A stretch of 64,000 nt of DNA, from NCBI RefSeq assembly GCF_036226465.1, contig NZ_CP108476.1:1612001-1676000 (forward strand), written 5' to 3'. Under the pieces are notes generated by a model. That model ran no database searches. It was not told the DNA's origin and was given only the letters and a program-made list of their open reading frames with translations. This stretch comes from Kitasatospora sp. NBC_01250. GTDB taxonomy: Bacteria; Actinomycetota; Actinomycetes; Streptomycetales; Streptomycetaceae. The position numbers were made by a program, and so were the translations under genes. Shown piece by piece: positions 24,251-31,485 of the stretch. Each line of letters opens with the position of its first letter. The first letter of the stretch is position 1.

Positions 24251-27136
24251 TCAGCCCACCAGTCGACGGGCCGTCAGTTCGGTGCGGTCGCGCACGCCGA
24301 ATCTTCGGTAGAGCCGGGTCAGGCTGCCCTCCACCGACTTGACCGAGACGTGCAGGGTGGTGGCGATCTGCCGGTTGGTCGCGCCGCCGCGCACCAGCTC
24401 GACGATCCGGCCCTCCAGGTCGCTGAGCGCGGGCGCGGGACCGTCGACCCCGTCCAGCCGGGCCAGCCGCTCCTGGGTGTGGGCCAGCCAGGGCAGGCAG
24501 CGCGCGGCGGCGAAGACCTCGGCCGCCGCTCGCAGGTCCGCCCGGGCGGCGGCCCGGCGCCTGGCCCGCCGCTCCAGGTCACCGAGGGTGAGCAGCGCGC
24601 GGGCGCGCTCCAGCGGGTAGGGGTGCGCACGCGGCAGCCGGGCGCGCAGTTCGTCGGCGGCGCCGCGCGGATCGCCGTCCCGCGCCGTCAGCAGCGCGCG
24701 GGCCCGGGCCAGTCCGAGCCGCAGCACCTGCCGGTCCAGCCGGGCGACCTCCGAGGTGGCCTCCTCCAGCGCCCGCCAGGCCCGTTCCGGCGCGCCCGAG
24801 GCGCACAGCGCCTCCACCAGGTCGGCGTCCACCAGGAAGAGTGCCGGATCGGTGTAGCCGAGCCCGCGCAGCAGCGAGCGGCAGCGGCCCAGGTGCTCGG
24901 CGGCCTGCGGGAAGCGTCCGCCGAGCAGGTCGGCGCGGCCCAGCAGGCCCACCGCGTAGGCGGCCCACTCGATGTCACCGGCCGCCTCGGCGGCGCGGAC
25001 GGCGGCCGTGGCCAGCTCGGTGGCACGCTCGACGGTGCCGCCGTTGAGCTCGGCCGCCGCGCTGAGCACCAGTCCGGGCGCGGGGGTCGGCCCCAGCTCC
25101 CGGCGCAGCCGGCCCCCGTAGCGGCCGGCCTGGTAGGCCTGGGCGCAGCGCCCGGCCCGCTCGTTCGCCGAGGCGACCAGGTGCAGCACGTCGGCCAGGT
25201 CCTTGAGCCGCCCGGCGCCCTCCACCTCCCGGCGCAGCTCGTCGACCTCCGCCAGTGCCTCGGTGACCGACCCGGCGCGCAGCAGCCACACCACCCGGCA
25301 GCAGCGGACCTGGATCGAGGCGGCGGTCAGCGCGGCGGCCGGACGCCCGGCGGCGAGCGCGGCGGCCTGCCGCAGCGAGGGCAGCACCCGGTCGGGGCGC
25401 AGCTGCATCTCGATCGGGGTGCGCAGCGCGATCACCTCGATCTGCTGCTCGGGGTCGCCACTGTGCTGCGCGTGGCGCTCGGCCTCGGCGAGTTCGGCCA
25501 GGCCCAGGTCACAGCGCCCGGTGCTGAGCGCGTGCTCCGCGCGGTGCAGCTGGACGGCGGCACGCAGCCGCGGGTCCTCGCCGGCGTCCGCCTGCGCCGC
25601 GTCGAGCAGCGCGGGCACCGACGACCGGTCGCCGCCGGCCAGTTGCACCAGGAGCAGCCGCGCGCCCACCCGGGCTGCCCGGTTGGCGGTGCGCAGGACG
25701 GCCGCGCAGGCCTGCTCGGCGGCCTCGCCCTGGCCCGCGTCGTGCGCGTGGCGGGCCGCGTCGAGCAGTCGGTCGGCGGCCAACTCCGGTTCGTCGGCCG
25801 TGCGTTCGGCGGCGAGGCGGGCCAGCTCGGCGGCCAGTGCGGGCGCCCCGCGATCGACCGCGATGCGGGCGGCGGCGGCCAGCTCGGCCGCCAGGCCCGG
25901 GTCCGGTTCGGGGCAGGCCAGCGCGCGGTGGCGGGCCCGCTCCAGCGGGTCCTCCAGCTCTGCCGCGAGGCGGGCGTGGCACTGCCGGCGCTCCTCCGGG
26001 GTGGCGTCGGCGTAGACCAGCTCACGCAGCAGCGGGTGGGCGAAGTGCGGCTCGCCGCCCGGCCCGTGGACCAGCAGGCCGGCGGCGAGCGCCGGGGCGA
26101 GCGCCTGCCGGTCGGCACCGGGGCGGGCTGCCTGTGCCGCATGATCTCCGTGAGCCCGATGATCTGCGTGAACGCCATGACCTGCGTGCGCCGCCTGATC
26201 TACGTGCGCCGCAGACAACCGGCTGACTGCGCCCAGCTGCAGCAACGCGTCGAGGGTCGCGCGCGGCAGCGTCGCCAGCCGGTCCGCGTGCGGGACGTGC
26301 AGTCTGCGCGGCACCGGCAGCGGGTCGTCGGCGCGGATCGCGGTCGGCAAGCGGCTTGCCGCCTGAGCGAGTTCGAGGGCGTAGCCGGGATTGCCGCCGC
26401 TGGCCAGCCTGATCCGCCCGGTGACCGGATCGCTCGGCGTCAGCCGGCCTCGGGTGCGGAGCAGTTCATCGATGACGGCGGGCGGCAGCGGGTTCAGCCC
26501 GAGTTCGGTCACGGGCTCCGGCAGCAGGTCGAGACAGCTGGGCTCGGCTCCCTCGGTGAGCCGCTCGGTGGCCAGCACCTGGACCCGGTGCCCGCCGATC
26601 CGGCGAGCGGCGAAGGCGAGCACCCGGGCGCTCTCCTGATCCAGGCAGTGCGCGTCGTCCAGGACCAGCAGCACCGGACGGCGCGCGGCCAGCGCCCGCA
26701 GCAGCTCCAGCACGGCGACCCGAAGGGCGAGTTGGTCCACCGCCCGGTCGGTGCGGGGATCCGGGCGGGGACCGGCGGGCCGGCCGGGCGAGCCCTCACC
26801 GGCCGGGGCGCGCAGCAGCGCGACGTCCAGCGCGGCACGCAGGTGCGGGGCTATCAGCCCGTCGCCCGGCCCCCCGACCCGCGCGTCCGGCTCCGCGAGC
26901 GGGCCCGCGAACAGGTCGTAGAGCGCGAGATGCGGCAACCCGGCCTCCAGCGCCGAGGAACCGCTGCGCAGCACCAGCGTTCCGCTCGCGGACGCCTCGG
27001 CGGCCATGGCGTCCAGCACCGCGGACTTCCCGATCCCGCCCGGCCCGGTCAGCAGCACCGCGCCACCACCCGCGAGACCGGCCCGGCAACGCAGCAGGGT
27101 CGTCTCGCGACCCAGGAGAGCCGTCACGTCGTTCAT
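24251..27136 (-). CDS. large ATP-binding LuxR-family (LAL) transcriptional regulator
   Basis: A 961-residue regulator of the LAL type often tied to secondary metabolism. Walker A is GPGGIGKSAVL (residues 31-41) and Walker B is PVLLVLDDAHCLD (about 160). A long helical TPR-like middle follows, then a C-terminal LuxR HTH (GGATNRQIATTLHVSVKSVE). ATG 27136 is chosen because homology begins at MNDVTALLGRE. Around residues 330-360 lies a His/Ala-rich insertion (AAHVDQAAHAGHGVHADH) encoded by imperfect tandem repeats. The target is unknown; neighbours are a protease and a thioesterase. Confidence 0.9.
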   Translation of the reverse strand: MNDVTALLGRETTLLRCRAGLAGGGAVLLTGPGGIGKSAVLDAMAAEASASGTLVLRSGSSALEAGLPHLALYDLFAGPLAEPDARVGGPGDGLIAPHLRAALDVALLRAPAGEGSPGRPAGPRPDPRTDRAVDQLALRVAVLELLRALAARRPVLLVLDDAHCLDQESARVLAFAARRIGGHRVQVLATERLTEGAEPSCLDLLPEPVTELGLNPLPPAVIDELLRTRGRLTPSDPVTGRIRLASGGNPGYALELAQAASRLPTAIRADDPLPVPRRLHVPHADRLATLPRATLDALLQLGAVSRLSAAHVDQAAHAGHGVHADHRAHGDHAAQAARPGADRQALAPALAAGLLVHGPGGEPHFAHPLLRELVYADATPEERRQCHARLAAELEDPLERARHRALACPEPDPGLAAELAAAARIAVDRGAPALAAELARLAAERTADEPELAADRLLDAARHAHDAGQGEAAEQACAAVLRTANRAARVGARLLLVQLAGGDRSSVPALLDAAQADAGEDPRLRAAVQLHRAEHALSTGRCDLGLAELAEAERHAQHSGDPEQQIEVIALRTPIEMQLRPDRVLPSLRQAAALAAGRPAAALTAASIQVRCCRVVWLLRAGSVTEALAEVDELRREVEGAGRLKDLADVLHLVASANERAGRCAQAYQAGRYGGRLRRELGPTPAPGLVLSAAAELNGGTVERATELATAAVRAAEAAGDIEWAAYAVGLLGRADLLGGRFPQAAEHLGRCRSLLRGLGYTDPALFLVDADLVEALCASGAPERAWRALEEATSEVARLDRQVLRLGLARARALLTARDGDPRGAADELRARLPRAHPYPLERARALLTLGDLERRARRRAAARADLRAAAEVFAAARCLPWLAHTQERLARLDGVDGPAPALSDLEGRIVELVRGGATNRQIATTLHVSVKSVEGSLTRLYRRFGVRDRTELTARRLVG
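26135..26215 (-). repeat. imperfect tandem repeat encoding a His-rich insertion
   Basis: Units of about 15-18 bp built on CATGATCTNCGTG recur at least four times inside the LAL gene. They encode the His/Ala/Asp/Gly-rich stretch. Such repeats change length easily by slippage. Confidence 0.55.
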
Positions 27137-27288
27137 GACGAAGAGTGTGGCGCCGAGGCGCTGCAATGGTCTAGTCCTTAAGCAATGTCCAGTTTATGAC
27201 GGCTCGTCACCCATGGGTGTCTTCGCGGCCGGCTGAAGGAGCACCGCCGCTCTGCGGCTGAGCGCACCTCCCGAGTATCCAGGGACCA

Positions 27289-28479
27289 TCACGCCACCGA
27301 CTCCCCGAAGCGCGGCAGCACAGTGCCCGGGGCGTCCAGCCAGAGGCGCTGAGCGTTGCCGGTCAGGGTGAGGCCGAACCTGCCGGGCCCGGGGCGGTCG
27401 TTGTCGAGCCACCAGCGGTAGCCGGCTTCGGTCTCGTCCCAGAGCCGGCGGGGCCCGTGCTGCCACACCGCGAACCGCGTTGCTTCCGGGTCCCCGTCCC
27501 AGTCGACCGCCGCCCATGAGGAGGCGTCGGTGGTGGCCAGCCACAGCCGCACCGCGACACCGTCCACGTCCGGATCGTGCTGCCGGGCGTGCCACACATC
27601 GCCGAGCCGGGAGCCCATGGCGAACTGGACATCGGCGTCCGATCCGGACACGACCCAGGGGTCCAGGTCGGTCGTCGACTCGTCCGGCAGGTGGTCGTCA
27701 CGCACCACGTCGCGGAAGATCCGCAGATCCGTGCGGTGCGAGCGCATCAGCATGAACGACCCGTAGGGCATGAAACGGCCCTCGGCGCGGCCGTCGCCGA
27801 CCACCAGGCGCAGCGTGCCCCAGCCGATCCACGGGTTCTCCCACGGCGTGAGGATGACCGCGCCGGGGCGCGCCTGAGCGAGCCAGGCCGTCGGTACCCG
27901 GTTGACCGCGCACGTGCTGATGATCCGATCGAAGGGCTGACGAGGAGGCCACCCTCCACCGCCGTCGGCGCAGACCACCTCGGGACGCAGGCCGGCGGCA
28001 CCGAGCGCGGTACGGGCGGTGGCAGCCACCTGGGCATCCACCTCGACCGAGGTCACGTTGGCATCGCCGAGACGGTACGCGAGAAGACCGGCGTTCCACC
28101 CCGTTCCCGTTCCGATCTCCAGCACCCGCATGCCCTCGCGGACATCGAGGTCTTCGAGCATCCGCACCACCACCGACGGCATGGACGCGGACGAGGACGG
28201 CCACACCGCACCCTCCCCCGGGGCCGCCCCGTCGTTCACCTGGGTGACCACAGGAGCGTTCGCACAGGAGGCCCGGAGCCAGCCGGCCGGGTCGTCCGCG
28301 CGGATGAGCGGCTCGTTGTCGTCGCCGACCCAGATCCGATCGGGGATGAAGAGGTGACGGGGGACCGCGGTGAGCGCCTTGGCCCACTCGTCCGGGATCT
28401 CGTGCCCGAGGTCGGCCGTCACCGAGCGGAGCAGGCCGCGCGAGGCGGCCTGCTCGTCAAGCTGGGGATCGTGCGTCAC
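27289..28479 (-). CDS. protein-L-isoaspartate O-methyltransferase-like enzyme, candidate RiPP (imiditide-type) modifier
   Basis: A 396-residue class I SAM-dependent methyltransferase. The N-terminal PIMT signature is ALTAVPRHLFIPDRIW. The substrate-loop-like segment is VNDGAAPGEGAVWPSSSASMPSVV in part (GAVWPSSSASMPSVV). Motif I is VLEIGTGTGWNAGLLA, and DRIISTCAVNRVP follows. It is about 180 residues longer than the housekeeping repair enzyme, with an extra Trp-rich C-terminal domain, as in RiPP-associated PIMTs. GTG 28479 overlaps the stop of the 46-residue peptide gene (GTGA). The inferred job is to methylate Asp in that peptide and promote aspartimide formation; a general repair role is the alternative. 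Confidence 0.75.
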   Translation of the reverse strand: MTHDPQLDEQAASRGLLRSVTADLGHEIPDEWAKALTAVPRHLFIPDRIWVGDDNEPLIRADDPAGWLRASCANAPVVTQVNDGAAPGEGAVWPSSSASMPSVVVRMLEDLDVREGMRVLEIGTGTGWNAGLLAYRLGDANVTSVEVDAQVAATARTALGAAGLRPEVVCADGGGGWPPRQPFDRIISTCAVNRVPTAWLAQARPGAVILTPWENPWIGWGTLRLVVGDGRAEGRFMPYGSFMLMRSHRTDLRIFRDVVRDDHLPDESTTDLDPWVVSGSDADVQFAMGSRLGDVWHARQHDPDVDGVAVRLWLATTDASSWAAVDWDGDPEATRFAVWQHGPRRLWDETEAGYRWWLDNDRPGPGRFGLTLTGNAQRLWLDAPGTVLPRFGESVA

Positions 28480-28616
28480 TTCTCCGCGCCGCCCTTGTGC
28501 TTCGGGTCCGGCGTCGGCCGCTGCCCGTCCTTGGACGGCTTGTCCTTGCTGAAGTCCTTGTCTCCGCCGTGCTTGCCGCCGCCGGAGCTTCCACCCTTAC
28601 CGGTTCCCCATCCCAT
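28476..28616 (-). CDS. 46-residue Lys/Gly/Asp-rich peptide, candidate RiPP precursor
   Basis: A small gene missing from most automatic calls. The product starts MGWGTGKGGSSGGGKHGG and ends in PDPKHKGGAEK. It has nine Lys, one Arg, two His, five Asp and one Glu, so it is basic overall, and has no Cys and no hydrophobic core. The single Asp-Gly pair (Asp30-Gly31) is the residue context most prone to aspartimide formation. ATG 28616 is preceded by a GAGAGAG-type site, and its TGA overlaps the methyltransferase GTG. The tight coupling to a PIMT-like enzyme fits an imiditide-type precursor; it could instead be an unrelated conserved small protein. Confidence 0.6.
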   Translation of the reverse strand: MGWGTGKGGSSGGGKHGGDKDFSKDKPSKDGQRPTPDPKHKGGAEK

Positions 28617-28728
28617 ATCTGCTCTCTCCTTGACTCGCTGGTCGATGCACTCGGTCAGGCCGCCGTGCGATTGCCGTCCGGCGGCATCGGACCGGGTATC
28701 GGCGGGCGGTGCGGCGGGGGAGGTGTAC

Positions 28729-29223
28729 TCACGCGTGAGCTCCCTTCGAGGTGAATGGTGTTCTGGCTTGCGCGGCGTCCACCAGGACGGCAATGCGCTG
28801 GTCGCCGGTCACCGGCTGGTCGGCGGCGCACTCGAACCACACGACCTTGCCTGCACCCGCCGGGGCCCAGCCCCACGAGTGCGCCAGACCGGCGACCAGC
28901 AGCAGCCCCCGACCACCGGTGACCATGTCCTGTGTGGCCGACGGATCGGGCAGGTGCAGGCTGCTGTCCGCCACCTCGACCCGCAGCCGCAGGCCCGTCC
29001 AGCGGACGGTCACCAGGCACCGGGCCTTGGTGTGCTCCACCGCGTTCGCCAGCAACTCGCCCGCGCACAGCTCCACATCCCGCAACGCGTCCTCCGACAG
29101 CGGGACCTTCCAGAAGCGCGCGATGTCGACGATCAACCGCCGGGCCGCCGGAACAGCCGCCGCGTCGGGCTCGACACCCCACTCGTACGGCACCGGGAAC
29201 GCCGCCGTGTCCAACGGACTCAT
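28729..29223 (-). CDS. RsbW/anti-sigma-type ATP-binding protein (GHKL fold)
   Basis: A 164-residue HATPase domain protein of the serine-kinase-like family abundant in streptomycetes. It has the N-box ELLANAVEHTKARC and the G-box-like segment GGRGLLLVAGLAHSWGW; the middle part RLRVEVADSSLHLP fits the Bergerat fold. Its ATG overlaps the stop of the preceding small gene (TGATG). Proteins like this often work with an adjacent XRE regulator and a small partner in WhiJ-like loci, which fits here. Kinase activity is not shown. Confidence 0.85.
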   Translation of the reverse strand: MSPLDTAAFPVPYEWGVEPDAAAVPAARRLIVDIARFWKVPLSEDALRDVELCAGELLANAVEHTKARCLVTVRWTGLRLRVEVADSSLHLPDPSATQDMVTGGRGLLLVAGLAHSWGWAPAGAGKVVWFECAADQPVTGDQRIAVLVDAAQARTPFTSKGAHA

Positions 29224-29573
29224 CAGCGCGCCCCCGTCTCGGGTTGCGGGCCGGCTTCAAGGGCGGTCGCGGCGGGTGGGTCTTCCCCACCGGAGGAGAT
29301 GTTGAGCAACTCACTCCGGCAGCACTTCTGACTCGATGTACGCCGTGGCCCCTGCCCCTCGGCCGGCTGGAGGGTGGAACCGTCGCGCCGGGCCGTCCAC
29401 TCCTCTCCACCGCCCGGGGGGCGAAGGTGGTAGGAGTAGACGCCCTCGCCGGGCACGTCGACCACAACGCCTGTGCGCTCGGTGGCCGAGTCCCTTGCCA
29501 GATCTCCCAACCGGGGCGTCCAGGTCGATGCGGGACCGTTCGCGCCTGCGGGGTTGATGCGTCGTCCGCTCAT
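29223..29573 (-). CDS. hypothetical 116-residue protein of the XRE-ATPase locus
   Basis: Starts MSGRRINPAGANGP and contains a short beta-rich core (RTGVVVDVPGEGVYSYHLRPPGG, then GEEWTARRDGSTL). I recognise this pattern from small hypothetical proteins encoded next to XRE and ATP-binding genes in streptomycetes, but know no function. The C-terminal 35 residues look unstructured. No ribosome binding site precedes the ATG. A TACTGT hexamer ends seven bases upstream, so the mRNA may be leaderless. Its stop overlaps the ATPase start. Confidence 0.6.
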   Translation of the reverse strand: MSGRRINPAGANGPASTWTPRLGDLARDSATERTGVVVDVPGEGVYSYHLRPPGGGEEWTARRDGSTLQPAEGQGPRRTSSQKCCRSELLNISSGGEDPPAATALEAGPQPETGAR

Positions 29574-29626
29574 GCAACAGACAGTAGGCGGCCGATTACA
29601 GCTGAATATGAATCCGAGGAATACCG

Positions 29627-30856
29627 CTATCCGTCCAGGTGGAAGCGGTCCGACATACGGCGCAGCTTCTCCCGGGTACTGCTTCGCTCGGCGTACACGA
29701 TCTTGCGCAGGGTGGCCCGTGCTATCGGGTGGTTCCGAACGAGCTGGGGGGCGATGCGCTCGGCTTCTTCTAGCTCGACAAGTGCTCTCTCCCGGTTGCC
29801 GTCCCACAGCCACGCGCGGGCGAGATCCATCCGATAGTGACCACGCCGGGAGTTGGGGAGCGTGGCGACCTGCGCGGGGTCTGCACGCTCGTGCAGAATC
29901 AGAGCCTTGGCGTGGTCCCCCATCTCCAACTGGACGGAGATGGCGTGGATTTGAACATTCCCGGGGGAGAAGGTCAGCGAGTGCCGATCGAACACGGAAG
30001 CATCCGTGGTCTCCAGCCTGGCTGCCGCTGACCGCGCGCGGGAGATCCGGTCTTCTGTCTCCTCGGGGTTGCCGGCGCGAGCGGCCGACACCGCCGCACG
30101 GAGTTGCAGAGTGCCCCAGGCCCGGACCGCGAGGGGTTTACCAGCCTCATACTCGGAGTCAATCGACCTGAGCGCTTTGTCCGAGAGTGCCAGCGCGTCC
30201 TCCCAGTCCGCGGTGGCCCACATGTCCCAGACCCGCATCCAGTCGGCCACGGCCGGCAGCACCGCGTCCCCGGACCGGCCGGCCGCCCAGGCCGCGCGTT
30301 CGCAAGCCATGGCGATCAACTCGGGGTGGCCGAGGGTATGCGCTGCCGTGTGGGCGAACTTGCAGCACACCGCGTAGATCCCGAATGCCTCTTCCCGTTC
30401 GTGGCCCGTTGCGGCCTCAGCCAGGGCACGGGCCTCGCGCAGGAGATCAGGCAAGACACGCAGAATCGCGACGTTCGCCGCCGAATCGCGGAGTCGGTGA
30501 AGTCGAGCCGTCTCCTGCCACAGACTCGCCGAAGAGCGTGGTGTTCCGTCGAAAACCGGCACCAAGTCGTAGCGGCGCAGTTCCCGAAGAATCGATGCCG
30601 CAGCCACCTGCCACTGATTCTCGGACGCCTTCCCCGCGACAAAGGGCCGTTCGATCAGGTCGTTCGGGTGGCAGTGCAGAGCCGCCGCAACCTCGTTGAT
30701 GACGGCGGCGCGATCAAGCTCGATCAACCCTCGCTCGACCTTCGAAACCCACCCCTGCGTCCTACCCACAGCAGCCGCGAAGTCAGCTTGCGGCATGCCC
30801 AGCCGGAGTCGTTGACGGCGGATGCGCTTCCCGATCGATTCGCGCTCTTCAAGCAC
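29627..30856 (-). CDS. XRE-family regulator with TPR-like domain
   Basis: A 409-residue regulator. Residues about 8-62 are an XRE helix-turn-helix (RLRLGMPQADFAAAVGRTQGWVSKVE, motif core WVSKVERG). The remainder is helical and repeat-like, as in streptomycete XRE-TPR regulators that sense peptides or protein partners. GTG 30856 is preceded by GGGAGGG. It is the first gene of the five-gene minus-strand locus and is 53 bp from the next start, so it probably controls this locus. Confidence 0.87.
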   Translation of the reverse strand: MLEERESIGKRIRRQRLRLGMPQADFAAAVGRTQGWVSKVERGLIELDRAAVINEVAAALHCHPNDLIERPFVAGKASENQWQVAAASILRELRRYDLVPVFDGTPRSSASLWQETARLHRLRDSAANVAILRVLPDLLREARALAEAATGHEREEAFGIYAVCCKFAHTAAHTLGHPELIAMACERAAWAAGRSGDAVLPAVADWMRVWDMWATADWEDALALSDKALRSIDSEYEAGKPLAVRAWGTLQLRAAVSAARAGNPEETEDRISRARSAAARLETTDASVFDRHSLTFSPGNVQIHAISVQLEMGDHAKALILHERADPAQVATLPNSRRGHYRMDLARAWLWDGNRERALVELEEAERIAPQLVRNHPIARATLRKIVYAERSSTREKLRRMSDRFHLDG

Positions 30857-30951
30857 TGTGGCCCTCCCTGCTGGTCCGCAATGATGCCGCCTGCGCCTGA
30901 CGACTCAGCCTCTTGAGAGACAGTACCCGGAACATGTGCCACCGGACTGAT

Positions 30952-31485
30952 TCAGATGCCCGCCTCATCGAGCAACAGGTAAAGCACGCCGACCAGCGAC
31001 CCGCTGCTGACGATCTCGCGGCGGTCGATCATGCCGCGCAGGTCGGACAGGGGAATCCACTCGATCCTGTCCGACTCGTTGCGCTCGGTCGGTGGCCCCA
31101 CGTACTCGACGGCCTCGGCCCGGAAGACGAAGTGCTCAGAGTCGATGATCCCGTTCGCCGGCTGAGCGTAGATGAGCGGCTTGACCTCTCCGGTCCGCCA
31201 GCCCGTCTCCTCCAGCGCCTCACGAGCCGCAGCCTCAGCCGGAGTCTCGTCCTCCTCGATCAGGCCCATGGGCAGTTCCCACGCCCACGAGTCGGTGATG
31301 AAGCGGTGCCGCCACATCATGAGAACCTGCTTCTCGCTGTTGACCACAGCGGTCACAGCCAAGTGCCGCAGCTTCAGCACGTGATGTTCCCAACGGCGCC
31401 CGTCAGGCTGCTCGACATCAACCAGCCAAACGTTCACCCAGGGGTTCTCATAGATCGGACGTTCCCCGTGGATCTTCCACTGCAT
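30952..31485 (-). CDS. Nudix hydrolase
   Basis: A 177-residue pyrophosphohydrolase. The Nudix box is complete: GLIEEDETPAEAAAREALEE followed by TGW, matching Gx5Ex7REUxEExGU. The ADP-ribose-pyrophosphatase-like layout (VTAVVNSEKQVLMMWRHRF before the box) suggests a nucleoside diphosphate-X substrate. GAGAGG precedes ATG 31485. It is 95 bp upstream of the XRE gene on the same strand and may be transcribed with it. Confidence 0.88.
   Translation of the reverse strand: MQWKIHGERPIYENPWVNVWLVDVEQPDGRRWEHHVLKLRHLAVTAVVNSEKQVLMMWRHRFITDSWAWELPMGLIEEDETPAEAAAREALEETGWRTGEVKPLIYAQPANGIIDSEHFVFRAEAVEYVGPPTERNESDRIEWIPLSDLRGMIDRREIVSSGSLVGVLYLLLDEAGI

What the first reader, a model, noticed from the sequence alone, without database searches (positions are those of the whole stretch)
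27289..28616. Minimal imiditide-like RiPP locus: 46-residue basic peptide coupled to a PIMT-type methyltransferase
A 46-codon gene rich in Lys, Gly and Asp, with no Cys, overlaps (GTGA) a methyltransferase that has the protein-L-isoaspartate methyltransferase signature plus a long extra C-terminal domain. Imiditides are described as RiPPs made from a short basic precursor and a PIMT homologue that forms an aspartimide. The single Asp30-Gly31 pair is an obvious modification site. The peptide is too short for most gene callers.
Basis: partly seen in the sequence, partly recalled or inferred. Interest (0 to 1): 0.78.

Follow-up and report, generated by a model that had tools for sequence, protein, structure and literature searches.

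The report
Imiditide-type peptide locus with proline-rich microgene
A Kitasatospora-type genome carries a small gene set that most likely makes a lysine- and glycine-rich peptide whose one key aspartate is turned into a ring (aspartimide) by a dedicated methyltransferase, a recently described kind of natural product, here preceded by an extra, unexplained proline-rich mini-gene.

Summary
A 46-aa basic, Cys-free peptide (28616-28476, minus strand) overlaps by GTGA a 396-aa methyltransferase (28479-27289): a PIMT fold plus a C-terminal domain as in Thermotoga PIMT 1DL5. The enzyme falls in a clade of imiditide-type (type I pamtide) enzymes, apart from graspetide, FxLD and general PIMT rows. In 46 distinct aligned precursors Asp30 is invariant and never followed by Pro; Asp21 precedes Pro in 37 of 46 and cannot cyclise there. 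Asp30-Gly31 is the best-supported site. This is a new member of a known family; the genome holds two more such pairs.

Such an ORF precedes 20 of 45 precursors of this type against 2 of 37 of other types; its codon changes look coding in 5 of 11 pairs, the window's own copy being uninformative. Relatives also precede a different cassette, a basic peptide plus a GNAT-like enzyme, one copy being in this genome. I found no description of it in texts I could read; its function is unknown.

The parts
28476..28616 (-). imiditide-type precursor peptide, 46 aa
   Evidence: conserved family, strong ribosome-binding site, coding-type substitutions
28527..28529 (-). codon of Asp30, predicted site of methylation and aspartimide formation (followed by Gly31)
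   Evidence: invariant in 46 of 46 distinct precursors; next residue T24, G15, H3, S3, R1, never P
27289..28479 (-). PIMT-type peptide L-aspartyl O-methyltransferase (PAMT), 396 aa, GTG start
28655..28732 (-). proline-rich microprotein gene, 25 codons, GTG start (VSTPPPPHRPPIPGPMPPDGNRTAA), GTGA overlap with the ATPase gene
28729..29223 (-). small HATPase_c_2 protein (weak RsbA-type match), 164 aa; probable first gene of the operon or its regulator
29627..30856 (-). helix-turn-helix (HTH_31) regulator, 409 aa, upstream on the same strand; regulatory link inferred only

Best explanation
This is a type I pamtide (imiditide) locus. The 46-aa precursor and the PAMT are made from one transcript (inferred from the GTGA overlap). 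The PAMT binds the linear, basic peptide, probably through its acidic C-terminal domain, and methylates the side chain of Asp30 with SAM (+14 Da). The backbone amide of Gly31 then closes the aspartimide (-18 Da against the unmodified peptide), which opens in water to isoAsp/Asp. Shown here: the genes, their linkage across genomes, the enzyme's predicted fold and clade, the conservation of Asp30. Inferred from characterised relatives (NmaA/NmaM, SpaA/SpaM): methylation, cyclisation, charge-based recognition. The co-encoded proline-rich ORF is most likely a real gene of unknown role; I think an accessory microprotein of the operon somewhat more likely than a purely regulatory leader. The biological activity of the product is unknown.
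For: Peptide/PAMT pair conserved: 46 distinct precursors of this type. Asp30 46/46 and never before Pro, while Asp21 (45/46) precedes Pro in 37 and Phe in 8. Three relatives have His after the Asp, as reported for NmaA (PMC13001092). PIMT domain plus C-terminal domain: AF2 mean pLDDT 93.1 on 34 sequences, the window's included; 1DL5 aligned over model residues 12-386, 309 residues, Z 27.4, rmsd 6.3. Clade separate from graspetide, FxLD and PIMT rows. Peptide basic (+4), enzyme acidic (-19; residues 215-396 -9, with DPDVDG at 302-307). Precursor length and composition broadly fit the published type I description. The four flanking genes scanned (LuxR/AAA, ATPase, HTH, NUDIX; within 24251-31485) are not ATP-grasp, lanthipeptide or lasso enzymes, and the genome's only TIGR04187 (graspetide ATP-grasp) match lies elsewhere.
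Against: No experiment. The WXXXGXP motif is WLDNDRP here; the Gly position is Gly in 23 and Asp in 12 of 46 loci, the window included. The acidic DPDVDG loop is missing in L020, L022, L025 and L027, which have the same precursor type, so it cannot be the general contact. 14 of 118 loci gave no precursor by script (several are deletions or fusions), so loci decay. The peptide is less proline-rich (4 of 46) than the published type I mean of 16.8%.
Confidence: 0.87

Rival explanations
1. The enzyme is an ordinary protein-repair PIMT and the small ORF is a chance or unrelated gene.
For: It matches PIMT families (TIGR00080 66.8 bits, PRK00312 90 bits) below their cut-offs and Pfam PCMT above its own.
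Against: The long C-terminal domain, best subfamily match TIGR04188 (292 bits, cut-off 380), clade position and the conserved adjacent peptide.
Confidence: 0.03
2. The enzyme modifies Asp30, but the lasting product is isoaspartate (backbone isomerisation), the aspartimide being only a short-lived intermediate.
For: Gly follows Asp30. For S. sparsogenes SpaA hydrolysis was complete by 24 h, and in NmaA a change of the next residue to Gly lowered both methylated and aspartimidylated species (PMC13001092).
Against: 24 of 46 relatives have Thr after the Asp, and no stability data exist for this peptide.
Confidence: 0.5
3. The proline-rich ORF is a regulatory leader: ribosomes pausing on its Pro runs set translation of the precursor, and the peptide itself does nothing.
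For: It lies 9-64 nt before the precursor, is rich in Pro-Pro, and is absent from over half of the loci of this type (20 of 45 have it). Four of 11 compared pairs do not have the third codon position as the single largest class (among them the window against L010: 0 synonymous, 3 nonsynonymous; L011/L012: 2 and 10).
Against: Third codon positions hold over half of the changes in 5 of 11 pairs (3,1,11 for L125/L027; 4,2,14 for L040/L081). In L014 and L193 it runs in one frame into the precursor, and in L184/L195 the motif is the N-terminus of a longer protein.
Confidence: 0.35

Closest known systems
Imiditides / type I pamtides (NmaA-NmaM of Nonomuraea maritima, SpaA-SpaM of Streptomyces sparsogenes)
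   Same: Short Cys-free precursor rich in Gly, Lys and Asp beside a PIMT homologue with a C-terminal extension; a conserved Asp followed by G/T/H/S; no other RiPP enzyme among the four flanking genes scanned; basic peptide and acidic enzyme
   Different: A proline-rich microgene precedes the precursor; WXXXGXP reads WLDNDRP; direct sequence comparison with NmaA/SpaA was not possible
Graspetide-associated PAMT (NCBIfam TIGR04188; own-genome example L004 beside the ATP-grasp gene L145)
   Same: Same enzyme superfamily; TIGR04188 is the best NCBIfam match of the window enzyme (292 bits, residues 30-378)
   Different: Below the family cut-off of 380; no ATP-grasp gene among the flanking genes scanned; separate clade
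FxLD lanthipeptide methyltransferase (TIGR04364)
   Same: PIMT core domain
   Different: 114 bits against a cut-off of 320, matching only residues 32-212; separate clade
Thermotoga maritima PIMT (PDB 1DL5)
   Same: PIMT core plus C-terminal domain; of the 50 rows shown the only one with more than 220 residues aligned (309)
   Different: 20% identity and rmsd 6.3; no precursor partner is mentioned in the passages read

Membership tests
imiditide / type I pamtide | Precursor gene directly beside a PAMT, with no primary modifying enzyme of another RiPP class | tested here: met
   GTGA overlap; the four flanking genes scanned within 24251-31485 are LuxR/AAA, ATPase, HTH, NUDIX. Genes further out were not scanned. 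The proline-rich microgene is an addition to the published two-gene set.
imiditide / type I pamtide | Precursor of about 45 aa, rich in Gly/Pro/Asp/Lys, without the tetracysteine motif | tested here: met
   46 aa, G13 K9 D5 P4, no Cys (Pro 8.7%, below the published mean of 16.8%)
[quoted passage not shown]
   Asp30 in 46 of 46 distinct precursors
imiditide / type I pamtide | PIMT domain with a C-terminal extension of more than 100 aa, related to that of TmPIMT | tested here: met
imiditide / type I pamtide | WXXXGXP near the C-terminus | tested here: inconclusive
   WLDNDRP; Gly position is G in 23, D in 12, N in 4, R and H in 1 each, no match of the search pattern in 5, of 46 loci with the window. 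W357 and P363 are invariant in 34 rows.
imiditide / type I pamtide | Enzyme clades with RiPP PAMTs, not with repair PIMTs | tested here: met
   (quick tree; only 5 rows stand for general PIMTs)
imiditide / type I pamtide | Methyl ester then aspartimide formed at the conserved Asp of the linear peptide | not testable with these tools
   needs co-expression and mass spectrometry
graspetide with auxiliary PAMT | ATP-grasp ligase beside the methyltransferase | tested here: not met
   not among the four flanking genes scanned; the genome's only TIGR04187 match is at G000:C1:1024632
type II pamtide / cysimiditide | Two CXXCXGXG motifs in the precursor | tested here: not met
   no Cys

The most novel reading that the evidence does not exclude
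The proline-rich microprotein (approximate consensus M[ST]TP..RPPGPGPMPP) is a shared component of several different peptide-modifying cassettes in Kitasatospora and relatives: imiditide loci of more than one precursor type, and a cassette of a basic peptide (about KHKGxxKxPPKH) with a 187-aa GNAT-like enzyme that would be an undescribed RiPP-like system. It would act in trans as a partner (presentation, stability, immunity or export) of chemically different modified peptides.
Probability: 0.3. Interest if true: 0.75.

Novelty: new variant of a known kind. Interest (0 to 1): 0.5.

Why it matters
Imiditides are numerous, but their biological role is unknown, and the published description I could read is a two-gene one. 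A third gene in part of these operons, whose relatives also precede a different enzyme cassette, gives a handle on function that can be tested by deletion or co-expression. The Asp30 conservation over 46 precursors with four recurring next residues (T, G, S, H) also gives a natural series for studying how the next residue sets aspartimide lifetime.

Tried and rejected
Considered and rejected: general repair PIMT; graspetide or lanthipeptide auxiliary enzyme; Asp21 as target (Pro follows in 37 of 46); Asp19, Asp25 and Asp37 (Asp in 5, 10 and 8 of 46); the proline-rich ORF as second aspartimide substrate (its Asp is not conserved: PPDG, PPRG, PPQR, MPPG).

Led nowhere: sigma-70 promoter scan (none found; 2 terminator-like sites against 1.2 in shuffles, both on the plus strand); NCBIfam and Pfam on the precursor (0 families); Pfam on the GNAT-like enzyme (best E 0.016, 0.076 and 0.15 for three copies, all under the cut-off; none at 0.01) and the PDB by profile (nothing better than E 0.51), so 'GNAT-like' rests on the RGKGVG motif, recalled, and on these marginal scores. 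No gene family downstream of the methyltransferase is shared by more than 4 of 46 loci within the 1.5-3 kb held.

Limits: the 80 named loci are the best of 418 candidates by similarity, so counts lean to this precursor type; the loci counted were fetched by the enzyme, so the reverse test (peptide without enzyme) was not made. Precursor picking used composition (G,K,D,P,N,S,Q,H,T at 65% or more) and start-site scoring. The 46 aligned precursors are 45 WG-type plus L028 (MGDQ start, no Asp21); L042 (same as L014) was trimmed by hand to start at GTG, while by script it is one ORF running on from the proline-rich one. The strict count of proline-rich ORFs is 20 of 45 and 2 of 37; of the 2, L028 has the motif and L085 looks like a chance ORF. 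With L028 and the fused L042 it is 22 of 46. In one search two rows (L067, L119) were labelled 'otherpre' by default; read by eye both carry a WG-type precursor. The tree is a quick search; the tool warned of long branches. The 12 'pimt' rows came from TIGR00080, for which only 1 of 60 genomes passed the cut-off. The proline-rich profile is weak: at E 10 it matches in 40 of 41 genomes, and only 28 candidates per genome were scored. Of one search's 31 places, 6 were not examined (L197, L199, L200, L201, L203, L204) and 4 examined ones have no cassette (L178, L196, L198, L202).

Full report
Where it is. The window is bases 1612001-1676000 of a 9.0-Mb single-contig genome. It is of genus Kitasatospora by inference: the unnamed same-genus genome G023 has a contig C87 of 155,141 bases with the matching locus, and the named record of that length and position is Kitasatospora aureofaciens CPD02.

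Observation. The minus-strand peptide (46 codons, 28616-28476) and the methyltransferase (396 aa, 28479-27289) are present with the GTGA overlap. The peptide has a good ribosome-binding site, no Cys, one Asp-Gly (residues 30-31), and +4 net charge.

The enzyme. Pfam PCMT covers residues 97-214. The best NCBIfam model is TIGR04188, 292 bits, below its cut-off of 380. An AlphaFold2 model on 34 sequences, the window's included, has mean pLDDT 93.1. Foldseek ranks 1DL5 first. VIA-align places 1DL5 third by Z (27.4; the top five are tied within 1), but aligned from residue 12 to 386 (309 residues, rmsd 6.3, 20% identity), while the other PIMTs shown align at most 216 residues. 1DL5 is the enzyme that the pamtide paper names as having the homologous C-terminal domain (PMC10787088, section 5 parts 1-2). 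The WXXXGXP motif of the review (PMC13001092, passages) is WLDNDRP here.

Relatives. Of 100 related genomes 71 have a match at E 1e-10 or better (this includes other PAMT kinds), and of 70 genomes of the genus 21 have a close one at E 1e-110; both counts include the window's own genome. I read upstream of 118 loci: 30 genome loci, 80 named loci and 8 of 9 further genome loci (L119 was skipped by the script). A precursor-like ORF was found in 104. Of these 64 loci have the window's type (M[GA]WGTGKGG...KDP..SKPS.D....P.P.PKHK), 46 distinct sequences, L028 with a different start included. In their alignment the position of window Asp30 is Asp in 46/46, followed by T 24, G 15, H 3, S 3, R 1; Asp21 is Asp in 45/46 but followed by P 37 or F 8. 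Asp-Pro has no backbone NH and cannot form an aspartimide (general chemistry), which leaves Asp30 as the only conserved Asp able to cyclise across the family. The basic PKHK stretch near the C-terminus is also well kept, in line with the reported need for C-terminal residues of SpaA and NmaA.

Clade. In a tree of 143 rows the window enzyme pairs with L010 (98) and sits in a 102-row set (95) of enzymes with imiditide-type precursors (48 WG, 26 DDSN, 4 GDQ, 13 labelled other of which two by default, 11 without a scripted precursor), apart from 17 graspetide rows and 24 FxLD/PIMT rows. Precursor loss or fusion was seen on reading: L079 precursor run into a shortened enzyme, L052 reduced to MGWGTGKGGGKHK, L056 a mix of proline-rich start and precursor end, L067 frame run-on.

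Same genome. Two further type I-like pairs lie outside the window: L002 (MGDQSKGGASDGKGGGHAKPGGPSIGPKPNPDGQGPTPDPKHK, enzyme at G000:C1:179246-180334) and L003 (MPEPEGGGHGGSPAPTPPMPWPPTPSPDSGPPPGNGGHRK, enzyme at 3113504-3114625); also a graspetide pair (1024632 and 1025867) and an FxLD enzyme (8386152).

The third gene. Between the ATPase gene and the precursor lies a 25-codon ORF, VSTPPPPHRPPIPGPMPPDGNRTAA, 28732-28655, whose GTG overlaps the ATPase stop as GTGA. A comparable ORF (ribosome-binding site, 15-45 aa, at least 20% Pro, 0-70 nt before the precursor) occurs in 20 of 45 distinct WG-type loci and 2 of 37 of other types (Fisher p 5e-5, which ignores relatedness). Of 11 pairs compared, third codon positions hold the most changes in 7 and over half of them in 5 (for instance 3,1,11 for L125/L027 and 4,2,14 for L040/L081). 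The window's own copy gives no such signal (3,1,0 against L010, all three changed codons nonsynonymous), nor do L011/L012 (5,6,4), L021/L024 (2,1,1) and L050/L051 (6,4,6). So it is most likely a real but fast-varying small protein gene in part of the family.

Beyond this precursor type. A profile of 12 of these peptides (A3) found 31 places at E 0.01 in 23 of 297 family genomes. The best 19 (E 7.5e-4 or lower) are 13 imiditide-type loci, 5 copies of another cassette and 1 start of a longer protein; 11 of the 19 were in the profile, and of the 8 new ones 4 precede imiditide pairs (L189, L190, L193, L211), 3 the other cassette (L194, L207, and G003:C1:6182753 next to L229) and 1 begins a longer protein (L195). 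Of the 12 weaker places 2 precede the other cassette (L208, L209), 4 have no cassette and 6 were not examined.

The other cassette is: proline-rich peptide, then a basic peptide of 32-38 aa with about KHKGxxKxPPKH, then a 187-aa enzyme with RGKGVG. Searching with that enzyme gave 21 matches in 12 of 200 family genomes, all of this genus. Of the 21, 18 are full length or nearly so; 17 of these 18 have the basic peptide and 11 an RPPG[PA] proline-rich peptide before it. This genome has one copy (enzyme G000:C1:4847644-4848207). In L014 and L193 the proline-rich frame runs on into the imiditide precursor; in L184 and L195 the motif is the N-terminus of a longer protein.

In print. The two texts on imiditides/pamtides that I could read describe two-gene clusters and do not mention such a gene in what I saw (PMC10787088: abstract, section 5 parts 1-2, section 10, term search; PMC13001092: abstract, passages, section 10). 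Searches (20 of 198 papers listed) gave no other account in the titles and abstract starts shown. The founding imiditide paper (Cao et al. 2023) is not held, and figures and supplements were not seen, so an account there is not excluded.

Mechanism. By analogy with NmaM and SpaM (read): SAM-dependent methylation of Asp30, attack by the Gly31 amide, aspartimide, hydrolysis to isoAsp/Asp. Gly after the Asp favours a short-lived aspartimide, so isoAsp may be the end product. Every chemical step is inferred. Recognition by charge fits the totals (+4 peptide, -19 enzyme), but the acidic DPDVDG loop is absent in 4 relatives with the same precursor type.

Verdict. As a member of a known family it is ordinary; the proline-rich microgene, whose relatives also precede another peptide cassette, is the part worth following.

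Noticed in passing
L213 / L208 (G000:C1:4847367-4848207, outside the window): Cassette in the window's own genome: proline-rich peptide VTSPTERPPGPMPPDGDTTDPDRDE, basic peptide MSTATMKHKGDAKPPPKHAGKPAPENPNPPQK, and a 188-aa GNAT-like enzyme; the enzyme is found in 12 of 200 family genomes, all of this genus. Possible undescribed RiPP-like system.
   Followed up: partly
L002 and L003 (G000:C1:179246-180334 and 3113504-3114625): Two more imiditide-type precursor/PAMT pairs in the same genome, with different precursor types.
   Followed up: partly
L022, L027, L029, L015, L017, L086 upstream of the precursor or enzyme: A conserved small protein ending like VWAAYGVSAAAGLHVVVAALVLINRSR, membrane-spanning by its look, between the ATPase gene and the cassette in one subclade.
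   Followed up: no
L184:1450-2019 and L195:1501 onward: The proline-rich motif forms the N-terminus of a longer protein (189 aa in L184, with a Gly-rich tail); no Pfam family reaches its cut-off for L184.
   Followed up: no
L079, L052, L056, L067: Natural wrecks of the locus: precursor fused to a shortened enzyme, precursor reduced to its two ends, proline-rich and precursor ends fused, frame run-on.
   Followed up: partly
window 24251-27166 (-): Large AAA_16/LuxR-type regulator directly downstream on the same strand; no gene family downstream of the methyltransferase is shared by more than 4 of the 46 loci.
   Followed up: partly
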